Source: Bacteroidales bacterium (GTDB lineage: Bacteria > Bacteroidota > Bacteroidia > Bacteroidales > JAFGHD01). Taken from it: DNA of 40,143 nt. Positions 5,766 to 13,282 of the stretch are shown here, piece after piece. The translations under genes were made by a program, and so were the position numbers. The first letter of the stretch is position 1; each line of letters starts with the position of its first letter. The DNA lies in assembly GCA_016939365.1 (NCBI GenBank), contig JAFGHD010000090.1, positions 1 through 40,143 of the forward strand, given 5' to 3'. The notes below the pieces were generated by a model, which searched no databases, was not told the origin of the DNA, and saw nothing but the letters and a program-made list of their open reading frames with translations.

Positions 5766-7403
5766 ATGAAAAAGATATTTGCCCTCCTGCTCATGAGTGC
5801 GGCCGTGCCTGCGTTCTGCCAGAACGTCACCATCACGGATGACAGCACCCATACGGCGGATCCATCAGCCGTGCTGGATGTCCATTCTGCGACGAAGGGA
5901 TTTCTCATCCCACGGCTCAGCTCGGCCGGAATACAAGGCATCAGTCAGCCGGCCACCGGCCTGCTGATCTACCAGACGGACGGGACGGAAGGATTTTATT
6001 ACAATAAGGGAACCCCCGCATCACCCTCATGGGAGATGCTGTCGGGTTCTTCTTCGTCCCTTTGGATCAAAGGCCCCCTGGGTTCAACCACCCTGCTGGG
6101 CAGCCAGGCCGACAGTGTCGGTATCGGCACTCCATGGCCCGAAGAAAAGCTGGATGTGACCGGTAATTTAGTACTTGACAACTTCATGCCGATGATCCTC
6201 TTCAAGGAAGACAGCATGCAGGCTGCCCGGATCATGCATTTCGGCCCGCCCAATAACGGCTATCTTCATCTCCAGGCATGGGACGGCAACAATTTCGAGA
6301 ATACCGGACTGGTGGTGAAATCGCCTGGGCAGGAGGTGGGTGTGGGAACCACCGCACCCGTATACCGCCTCGATGTGGCAGGCACCGCACGGATGAACGG
6401 ATTCATCCTTTCTTCACCGACAGACAGCGGCTATGTGCTGACTTCGGATGAAAACGGCCTGGGAACCTGGAAACACATGCCACAACACGTGTCAGGAACC
6501 GGTACTCCGGATTATATCCCAAAGTTCTCTTCAGCTGACACCCTTGCCAACTCAACGCTTTACCAGGACAGCCAGGGCAGGATCGGTATCGGGATGAACC
6601 TCCCCGCGGAAAGACTCCAGGTGAACGGCAACGTCAAGGCCACCCAGTTCATCGGCAATGGGTCCCAACTCACCGGAATCCCCGGTGACAACCTGGGCAA
6701 CCACACAGCCACCTCCAACATCCGGTCAAACGGTCACTGGCTCAGCAGCGACGGAGGCAATGAGGGCATTTTCATTAACAACGACGGCAAGGTGGGTGCC
6801 GGGATCAACAGCGTGCTAAACTCACTCTTCACCTCCAACGGTATGATCGAATCACGTTCCGAAGGATACCGCTTCCCGGACGGTACGGTACAGATGTCCG
6901 CCGCCGCATCCTCCATGCCGGATGTGGGAACCCCCAGGCTGGAAATAGGACTGGAATGCAGCAATTTCCCGGGCAGCTGGGGAGTTCAGTATTGCCCTTA
7001 CTGCAGCGCTGTTTTCGATGTCAAGTGGTACTCCAGCCGGCCTTGGAATGAAAATAGCGGTCTGCCATCAGGCGACAGGAGATACAAGGCCCTGACGGTC
7101 ATCAAGGATGTGGATCTGGCAACTGTTAAATACATCGAGTATTTCAATCTCAATCAACAAATGAATGAACTGATCCTTCATTATTACTGGATTGAGCCGC
7201 CACAGGGTCAGATCGTTGAATATTACCGCATTCGCCTGCAGGACGTCTGGATCGTCGCCTTCAACACCCGGGTGATGGAGGTGGACGGGGGGTATGCCCA
7301 TCTGGATGAGATATCCATTATTGCAGAGGATATCAGGTGGGAATACCTACCTGCCGGTTTGGAGTTTAATATACAGTGGATTTTCCCTCACCTGGATAAC
7401 TGA
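5766..7403 (+). CDS. Exported fibre-like protein with Hcp-like C-terminal domain
   Basis: A 545-residue secreted protein. Residues 1-19 form a signal peptide ending in AFCQ. Residues about 20-95 are the module found at the start of many exported Bacteroidota proteins (ADPSAVLDVHSATKGFLIPRL, TGLLIYQTDGTEGFYY). The middle carries fibre-type repeats near 118-135, 191-208 and 272-300, of the form (V/I)GIGT..P...LDV.G, the last ending in ATQFIGNGSQLTGIPG as in phage tail-fibre-like proteins. Residues about 405-540 resemble the Hcp tube-protein fold: KALTVIKDVD, then EYYRIRLQDVWIVAFN, then HLDEISIIAEDIRWEY. A CPYC motif (410-413) opens this region. No other type VI genes are nearby, so a surface fibre or adhesin is likelier than a secretion tube. 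The ATG at 5766 begins the signal peptide; the in-frame start at 5730 is less likely. Confidence 0.75.
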   Translation: MKKIFALLLMSAAVPAFCQNVTITDDSTHTADPSAVLDVHSATKGFLIPRLSSAGIQGISQPATGLLIYQTDGTEGFYYNKGTPASPSWEMLSGSSSSLWIKGPLGSTTLLGSQADSVGIGTPWPEEKLDVTGNLVLDNFMPMILFKEDSMQAARIMHFGPPNNGYLHLQAWDGNNFENTGLVVKSPGQEVGVGTTAPVYRLDVAGTARMNGFILSSPTDSGYVLTSDENGLGTWKHMPQHVSGTGTPDYIPKFSSADTLANSTLYQDSQGRIGIGMNLPAERLQVNGNVKATQFIGNGSQLTGIPGDNLGNHTATSNIRSNGHWLSSDGGNEGIFINNDGKVGAGINSVLNSLFTSNGMIESRSEGYRFPDGTVQMSAAASSMPDVGTPRLEIGLECSNFPGSWGVQYCPYCSAVFDVKWYSSRPWNENSGLPSGDRRYKALTVIKDVDLATVKYIEYFNLNQQMNELILHYYWIEPPQGQIVEYYRIRLQDVWIVAFNTRVMEVDGGYAHLDEISIIAEDIRWEYLPAGLEFNIQWIFPHLDN

Positions 7404-11818: not shown

Positions 11819-13282
11819 TCAATACCTGAACCCGAGAGTGAGCAGGAAGTTGTTGGTGATCATTTTGTTTTTAACAGGGTTGACCTGTACTTCGTTCAGA
11901 GTGTACAGATAGTAATCCTCCCGGGAAACGGAGCGGACATAGGCCAGATCCATGAAGAAATGCTTGTCACGGTAACCAATGCCTCCCGAGTAATACTGCT
12001 GTTCCGCATCATTGAGTGTTGATTTGAACGGGCTGCCGTACCATCCGAAACCTCCGCGCAGGGTCAGGTGGTCGATCCGGTATTCGCCTCCCAGCCTGAG
12101 GTTGGAAGCGGAGGTGTATACATTGCGGATGGCGGCGTTTTCTTCGATGAAGTTGTATTCACCCGACCGGAGCCGCGACTGCGAGTAGTCCATATACTCG
12201 TAATCCGCACTGATAAGGCCGTATTGGCCGATGATGAAAGCAATACTTCCGATTGCCTTCAAAGGAGTTTCCAGTTTGTAATCGAAGTATCCGTCGGGGG
12301 AGTATTGCCTTTCGGAGGAATAGACGTCCCAGTATGTTTCCATCCGGCTGTACCAGTTGTCGGACATACCGGTAAACCAGGTGGGTGTGTGGATGGCTCC
12401 GCCCAGTCGGAGCCAGTCAGTGGCTCTCAGTAGCATGCCGAATTTAAAGTTGATACCCGTACCTTTCGTACGCAGGTAATCATACAATTCGAAGCTTTTA
12501 AATTCGGGATAGCTGTTATTATAGTCCTCCTCAGAGTAATAGGATTCCTGGAAATACCGGATATAGGGGAATCCAAGGGTAATTCCGGCGTAAAGCCTGT
12601 CGGCATAGTTTGTACCGAGAGAGAGCACCATCTCATTCATCGAGCCCCAGGTGGTGATCATCTTCCGCTGGAGGAGATCACCGCTTGCGGCCCCGGTGTA
12701 TCTGTCGGGCATTCCTGCAACCGTATCCAGCAGATAAGTCCACCAGGCCATATTGAGATCGTATGCATAGTATCCGTAAGGATCTTCCTCAAGGTCACTG
12801 TAATGGATGCCGTTGGCATCCTCGACATACGAATCGATCATGGAATGATAGGGGCTGACACCCTGGATATTCATCCTGTTGTGGTAATTATTCAGACGGT
12901 TCAAACCAATGGCAAACTGGAAGGATTTCAGGTCTCCGGATCCGTCAATGGGCATGTTCAAAACCAGCCCCACATTGCTCAGGTTGAAATTCTCCTTGGA
13001 ATCGTCTGAAAAGGTGCCGTTGTGGGTTGATTCGGTTTTTCCGAAATAGAGTGCCGGGGTAATTGAAAATTCAGAATTCTGATACAGTCCGATACCGGCC
13101 GGATTGGTGCTGAGTACCGAAAAGTCGGCACCCAGGGCCCCAAAAGCCCCTCCCATGCTGACGAAGCGGGCGGTGCCTCCAAGGCTGGTCCGTGAATATC
13201 TGAGTGCATCCACCTCATTCTGCCCTGCAGCCAGGGATACAATAAGGGCTGCCATCACTGTCCAAAATGATCTCTTTTTCAT
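11819..13282 (-). CDS. OmpP1/FadL/TodX-like outer membrane transport protein
   Basis: A 487-residue outer-membrane beta-barrel related to the FadL family, which takes up hydrophobic compounds. A signal peptide (about 1-20, ending SLAAGQ) is followed by RYSRTSLGGTARFVSMGGAFGALGADFS and NPAGIGLYQNSEF, the hallmark FadL/OmpP1 N-terminal segment, then alternating amphipathic strands. The last residues, LLTLGFRY, end in an aromatic as expected for a barrel closing strand and BAM recognition. It lies 53 bases after the aromatic-rich lipoprotein gene and may be co-transcribed with it. A terminator follows. The substrate is not known. Confidence 0.87.
   Translation of the reverse strand: MKKRSFWTVMAALIVSLAAGQNEVDALRYSRTSLGGTARFVSMGGAFGALGADFSVLSTNPAGIGLYQNSEFSITPALYFGKTESTHNGTFSDDSKENFNLSNVGLVLNMPIDGSGDLKSFQFAIGLNRLNNYHNRMNIQGVSPYHSMIDSYVEDANGIHYSDLEEDPYGYYAYDLNMAWWTYLLDTVAGMPDRYTGAASGDLLQRKMITTWGSMNEMVLSLGTNYADRLYAGITLGFPYIRYFQESYYSEEDYNNSYPEFKSFELYDYLRTKGTGINFKFGMLLRATDWLRLGGAIHTPTWFTGMSDNWYSRMETYWDVYSSERQYSPDGYFDYKLETPLKAIGSIAFIIGQYGLISADYEYMDYSQSRLRSGEYNFIEENAAIRNVYTSASNLRLGGEYRIDHLTLRGGFGWYGSPFKSTLNDAEQQYYSGGIGYRDKHFFMDLAYVRSVSREDYYLYTLNEVQVNPVKNKMITNNFLLTLGFRY

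What the first reader, a model, noticed from the sequence alone, without database searches (positions are those of the whole stretch)
5766..7403. Hcp-like domain on the end of a secreted fibre-like protein
Seen: a signal peptide, the common Bacteroidota exported-fibre N-terminus, three fibre-type repeats, and a C-terminal region (about 405-540) whose order of motifs (KALTVIKDVD; EYYRIRLQDVWIVAFN; HLDEISIIAEDIRWEY) follows the Hcp tube protein pattern. Known: Hcp normally forms rings in type VI secretion and has no Sec signal. Inference: here the fold may cap an extracellular fibre or form a trimeric or hexameric tip, with the CPYC motif as a possible metal or disulphide site. No type VI genes are nearby.
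Basis: partly seen in the sequence, partly recalled or inferred. Interest (0 to 1): 0.62.

Follow-up and report, generated by a model that had tools for sequence, protein, structure and literature searches.

The report
T6SS tube domain tipping exported fibre
A Bacteroidales bacterium that appears to lack a type VI secretion system makes Sec-exported fibre proteins whose tips are the ring-forming Hcp domain of the type VI needle tube, which suggests that this injection-machine part has been reused as an interchangeable cap for surface fibres.

Summary
The ORF at 5766-7403 (545 aa) has a Sec-type signal peptide, a recurrent Bacteroidota N-terminal domain, four fibre repeats (three good, one degenerate), an FPDGTVQ joint and a C-terminal Hcp domain. 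Pfam PF05638 matches at E 1e-11, 45.6 bits against a cut-off of 23.5. A profile of six such domains finds solved Hcp structures down to E 1.2e-20.

The genome has three such proteins and no detectable T6SS (no VipB, no VgrG OB-fold, no PAAR by Pfam). Relatives occur in two other Bacteroidales MAGs and, more distantly, in a fourth Bacteroidota MAG (L058), all without VipB. The order survey found the long architecture in 3 of 393 genomes.

After FPDGTVQ, other fibres carry Peptidase_S74, YadA head, Collar, C1q, H-type lectin and other modules. The best reading is therefore that Hcp is an exchangeable, probably oligomeric tip of an exported trimeric fibre, not a secretion-system part. A sister fibre ending in a VgrG-like beta-helix and PAAR-like tip lies next to one relative and about 5 kb from a paralog; what that pairing means is open.

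CPYC is not conserved; the recurrent pair is C398/C413, a likely disulphide. Oligomeric state, outer-membrane crossing and target are untested.

The parts
5766..5819 (+). Sec-type signal peptide (aa 1-18, MKKIFALLLMSAAVPAFC), no lipobox
   Evidence: By inspection; paralogs end the same region in S/QN. No SignalP available.
5820..6041 (+). Bacteroidota N-terminal domain (TADPSAVLDVxSxxKGFLIPR...YQTDGxEGFYYNxGTP), no Pfam model
   Evidence: Conserved in the two paralogs and in L004 and L005; found in many Bacteroidota loci; no Pfam or NCBIfam hit
6042..6836 (+). Fibre region with four VGIGTxxPxxxLxVxG-type repeats (aa 118, 191, 273, 343; the last degenerate)
   Evidence: phage tail / tail fibre PHROGs match at 1.2e-8 and 9.9e-7; weak tblastn hits to phage records including a distal tail fibre protein
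6873..6893 (+). FPDGTVQ joint (aa 370-376), after which C-terminal modules are exchanged
6936..7400 (+). Hcp domain (aa 391-545; Pfam match aa 416-527 = 7011-7346)
   Evidence: Foldseek of a homologous domain model
6957..6959 (+). C398, proposed disulphide partner (in L005 the Cys is one residue earlier)
7002..7004 (+). C413, Cys in all five long exported forms and in none of 34 non-exported Hcps
6993..7004 (+). CPYC motif (C410-C413); C410 shared only with paralog L003, so not a conserved site

Best explanation
The gene encodes a Sec-exported, probably trimeric fibre whose C-terminal tip is an Hcp domain taken from the T6SS/phage-tail tube family and used without a T6SS. Shown: the domain identity, the exported-fibre architecture (signal peptide by inspection), its recurrence in three paralogs and three other MAGs, absence of the T6SS sheath gene VipB in all four of those genomes, and that the same FPDGTVQ joint carries other tip modules in other proteins. 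Inferred: the Hcp domain acts as the oligomerising cap or binding head of the fibre. It would assemble either as a three-fold ring on one fibre or as a hexamer joining two trimeric fibres, stiffened by a C398-C413 disulphide that would clamp the hairpin loop between the first two strands.
For: PF05638 above cut-off in the window protein, both paralogs, L004, L005 and L058. Six-row profile to PDB Hcps, E 1.2e-20. Low-confidence model of the L004 domain still ranks Hcps first (4hkh, E 5e-4, prob 1.0). No VipB, Phage_base_V or PAAR match in the genome, while control genomes ring; no VipB in the genomes of L004, L005 and L058, with two T6SS-bearing phylum members ringing. 59 C-terminal regions after FPDGTVQ carry S74 (10), Hcp (6), YadA head (3), Collar, C1q, H-type lectin, FGE-sulfatase, Lcl_C and others. 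The five long fibre-Hcps group together (97/99). C413 is Cys in 5 of 5 long forms and 0 of 34 non-exported Hcps.
Against: No test of oligomeric state, surface location or binding. Both AlphaFold models are low confidence (pLDDT 43 and 48). The protein has no T9SS tail, so how it would cross the outer membrane is unknown. The set used for the module count was retrieved with Hcp-fibre queries, so Hcp frequency in it is biased.
Confidence: 0.68

Rival explanations
1. The Hcp-tipped fibres and the sister fibre with a VgrG-like beta-helix and PAAR-like tip form one extracellular assembly, an exported tube-and-spike device without a contractile sheath.
For: In L004 the beta-helix/PAAR fibre gene ends 47 bp upstream of the fibre-Hcp gene. 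In the window's own genome the same two kinds lie about 5 kb apart on C184. Spike part: PAAR_motif E 1.3e-4 and DUF2345 E 7.2e-4 in L004, DUF2345 E 7e-6 in L072, all below curated cut-offs; best PDB hits for L004 are VgrG/gp5 proteins.
Against: The window copy and the C175 copy have no such neighbour. The genomes of L005 and L058 lack the spike fibre. No VgrG OB-fold/base domain was found in the genome, so the part by which a VgrG spike docks on the tube is missing. On C184 three unrelated genes lie between the two.
Confidence: 0.12
2. The Hcp domain is only a folding nucleus for the trimeric fibre, like a foldon or S74 chaperone, with no binding role.
For: The commonest module in the same slot is Peptidase_S74, an intramolecular chaperone. 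Fibres often need a C-terminal trimerising cap (established knowledge).
Against: Other modules in the same slot are typical binding heads (lectin, C1q, Collar). Shorter exported proteins carry an Hcp-like domain without any fibre to fold (L127, L128, L144, L145).
Confidence: 0.15
3. A T6SS or phage/eCIS component or effector (evolved Hcp) delivered by a machine encoded elsewhere.
For: The Hcp domains of L004 and L005 exceed the NCBIfam TssD cut-off (61.8 and 61.7 bits against 58.9); fibre repeats resemble phage tail fibres.
Against: Signal peptide and long N-terminal fibre; no VipB, Phage_base_V or PAAR match; housekeeping neighbours; no Hcp-domain match in phage records.
Confidence: 0.04

Closest known systems
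Hcp / TssD, T6SS tube protein (PF05638, TIGR03344)
   Same: Sequence family and, by low-confidence model of a homolog, order of fold elements
   Different: Sec-exported, fused to a fibre, in a genome without detectable T6SS; extra Cys pair; window domain scores below the TIGR03344 cut-off
Hcp fused to extra C-terminal effector domains ('evolved Hcp'; own knowledge)
   Same: Hcp in a multi-domain protein
   Different: There Hcp is N-terminal, not Sec-exported, and carries an effector through a T6SS; here Hcp is the C-terminal end of a Sec-exported fibre
Phage tail fibres and exported bacterial fibres ending in Peptidase_S74, Collar, C1q or lectin modules
   Same: Fibre repeats, FPDGTVQ joint and C-terminal exchangeable module
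   Different: The module is an Hcp tube domain
VgrG/gp5 spike with PAAR tip
   Same: Sister fibre C-termini (L072:2100-2657, L004:1020-1445) resemble the beta-helix and, in L004, a PAAR motif
   Different: Sits on a fibre stalk instead of a gp27/OB base; all Pfam scores below curated cut-offs

Membership tests
Hcp domain family (PF05638) | Match above the curated gathering score | tested here: met
   45.6 bits against 23.5
Hcp domain family (PF05638) | Hcp fold | tested here: inconclusive
   Profile to PDB Hcps E 1.2e-20, but the models have pLDDT 43-48; Foldseek top hits are Hcp
Hcp domain family (PF05638) | Hexameric ring | not testable with these tools
   No multimer prediction offered
T6SS tube protein TssD | NCBIfam TIGR03344 cut-off | tested here: not met
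   45.4 bits against 58.9 for the window protein; L004 and L005 do pass
T6SS tube protein TssD | T6SS core genes in the genome | tested here: not met
   VipB and Phage_base_V absent with controls ringing; Bacteroidota TssD PF17642 absent but its control did not ring
T6SS tube protein TssD | No Sec signal | tested here: not met
   Signal peptide by inspection in the window protein and its close homologs
T9SS cargo | C-terminal sorting domain (TIGR04183) | tested here: not met
   No hit at E <= 10
Phage tail fibre | Phage genes around it | tested here: not met
   Neighbours include rmuC-like, S41-type peptidase and SOD (by inspection), glmS-type (GATase/SIS) and DUF4270

The most novel reading that the evidence does not exclude
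Exported fibres bearing Hcp rings and exported fibres bearing VgrG-like beta-helix/PAAR spikes assemble outside the cell into a sheathless tube-and-spike structure, a puncturing or adhesion device built from T6SS parts but delivered by Sec.
Probability: 0.1. Interest if true: 0.85.

Novelty: new variant of a known kind. Interest (0 to 1): 0.56.

Why it matters
Hcp is normally taken as a marker of type VI secretion. Here it recurs on Sec-exported fibres in genomes with no detectable T6SS sheath, and two of its relatives pass the NCBIfam TssD cut-off, so automatic annotation would call them T6SS tube proteins and could report systems that are not there. It also suggests that tube and spike modules of contractile machines can be reused as fibre tips, and it gives a testable question: does an Hcp ring form at the end of a trimeric fibre?

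Tried and rejected
CPYC as a conserved metal site: C410 is in 2 of 5 long forms. Phage or prophage origin: no Hcp-domain match in phage records, no relative in viral contigs, housekeeping neighbours. T6SS in the genome: marker searches negative. Structure prediction: two jobs with 4- and 3-row alignments, both low confidence; I tried to deepen the alignment with canonical Hcps from viral contigs and none were found. Literature searches found no description of Sec-exported Hcp fibres in the open library, judged from titles and abstracts, which does not show that none exists. PADLOC: nothing.

Full report
WHAT IS THERE. The ORF at 5766-7403 (+) encodes 545 aa. It begins with a Sec-type signal peptide (by inspection), then a domain common in exported Bacteroidota proteins (TADPSAVLDVxSxxKGFLIPR...YQTDGTEGFYYNKGTP), then four VGIGT-type fibre repeats at aa 118, 191, 273 and 343, the last degenerate, then FPDGTVQ at 370-376, then the C-terminal domain. 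PF05638 (Hcp) matches aa 416-527 at 1e-11, 45.6 bits, above its cut-off. TIGR03344 gives 45.4 bits, below its cut-off of 58.9. A single-sequence search of the PDB finds Hcps weakly (4hkh E 4e-4); a profile of six such domains finds 19 PDB sequences at E <= 0.01, nearly all Hcps or Hcp fusions, best E 1.2e-20.

STRUCTURE. AlphaFold2 with the few rows allowed gave low confidence: pLDDT 43 for the window domain plus stem and 48 for the L004 domain. The order of elements in the second model (two strands, one helix, long strands) is that expected of Hcp. Foldseek of that model against the PDB puts Hcps at the top ten ranks (4hkh E 5e-4, prob 1.0), but TM-scores are about 0.4, so this supports the sequence evidence and does not replace it.

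HOW MANY, AND WHERE. The genome (3.67 Mb, 197 contigs, 97.5% complete) holds three PF05638 proteins, all of this architecture: the window protein, a 320-aa paralog on C184 and a 322-aa paralog on C175. Outside it, the long architecture is in L004 and L005, both titled Bacteroidales MAGs, and a shorter form is in L058. Of 393 genomes of the same order, five match the domain profile: this one, two that hold the same proteins as L004 and L005, and two (L144, L145) with signal peptide, N-terminal domain and a divergent Hcp-like domain without further fibre repeats. That the order is Bacteroidales is inferred from the titles of L004 and L005. In the class, L127 and L128 are signal peptide plus Hcp-like domain alone. 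In the phylum, 43 of 396 genomes match PF05638; the 30 loci fetched hold unfused Hcps in frames mostly of 160-230 aa, without an exported-fibre N-terminus. The five long fibre-Hcps form one group in a tree (97/99), on a long branch.

NO TYPE VI SYSTEM FOUND. The genome has no match at E 0.1 to VipB (PF05943), Phage_base_V (PF04717) or PAAR (PF05488), and E. coli rings in each of these controls. The Bacteroidota-type TssD (PF17642) was also not found, but nothing rang in its control, so that result is not informative. VipB is also absent from the genomes of L004, L005, L058, L127, L128, L144 and L145, while two T6SS-bearing members of the phylum ring.

AN EXCHANGEABLE TIP. I took the stretch after FPDGTVQ-like motifs from 56 places in the loci, added the window and two paralogs, and scanned the 59 with Pfam. 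They carry Peptidase_S74 (10), Hcp (6), YadA head (3), glycine-rich (2), and one each of phage Collar, FGE-sulfatase, Lcl_C, H-type lectin, C1q and Laminin_G_3. The loci were retrieved with Hcp-fibre queries, so the Hcp count is inflated, but the variety is real. The window's own genome has at least ten further fibre proteins with other C-termini, including S74-like ones by inspection. This is the main reason for reading the Hcp domain as a fibre tip.

A SISTER SPIKE. In L004 the gene that ends 47 bp upstream of the fibre-Hcp gene is a fibre with a beta-helix-like repeat region and a PAAR-like end (PAAR_motif E 1.3e-4, DUF2345 E 7.2e-4, both below curated cut-offs); its best PDB hits are VgrG/gp5 proteins. 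The window's genome has one relative of it on C184 (L072:501-2660, DUF2345 E 7e-6), about 5 kb from the fibre-Hcp paralog, with three unrelated genes between. The genomes of L005 and L058 have none. Two of four is suggestive and no more.

CYSTEINES. CPYC (C410-C413) is not conserved: C410 is shared only with the C175 paralog. C413 is Cys in all five long forms and in none of 34 non-exported Hcps; its likely partner C398 is Cys in four, and L005 has a Cys one residue earlier. I infer a disulphide between the first two strands, as expected for an exported protein; not tested.

MECHANISM. Most likely (0.68) the protein is exported by Sec, trimerises through its fibre repeats, and displays the Hcp domain at its tip as an oligomeric cap or binding head. 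One Hcp domain per chain in a trimer gives half a hexamer, so either the domain closes as a trimer or two fibres share one ring. How the fibre crosses the outer membrane is open: no T9SS tail. Rivals and their tests are listed in their sections.

NOVELTY. The domain families are known; the combination, exported fibre ending in Hcp in genomes without detectable T6SS, was not found described in the open literature I could search. I call it a new variant of a known kind.

Noticed in passing
L072:501-2660 (G000 C184) and L004:12-1448: Fibre-repeat proteins (the L072 one with a signal peptide) ending in a VgrG/gp5-like beta-helix and a PAAR-like tip, near or next to fibre-Hcp genes.
   Followed up: partly
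G092, G197, G736, G130 (L111, L117, L124, L096): Genomes of the phylum that carry unfused, unexported Hcp (MALNAYL... type) but no VipB match: orphan Hcps, or a sheath too divergent for PF05943.
   Followed up: no
L144:2341-2943 (-) and the Hcp-like ORF on the same strand of L144: A short exported N-domain-Hcp-like protein lies near a protein with a T9SS type A sorting domain (TIGR04183, E 1.1e-11).
   Followed up: no
L131-L139 (G000 contigs C82, C5, C119, C11, C103, C91, C13, C77, C146): The genome holds at least ten more fibre proteins with assorted C-terminal modules, some S74-like by inspection; several begin with a different N-terminus (PPQAFKYQAVxRD...).
   Followed up: partly
window 11819-13282 (-): Weak PorV/PorQ-family match (22.2 bits against a cut-off of 90), at most a hint of T9SS in this organism.
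   Followed up: no
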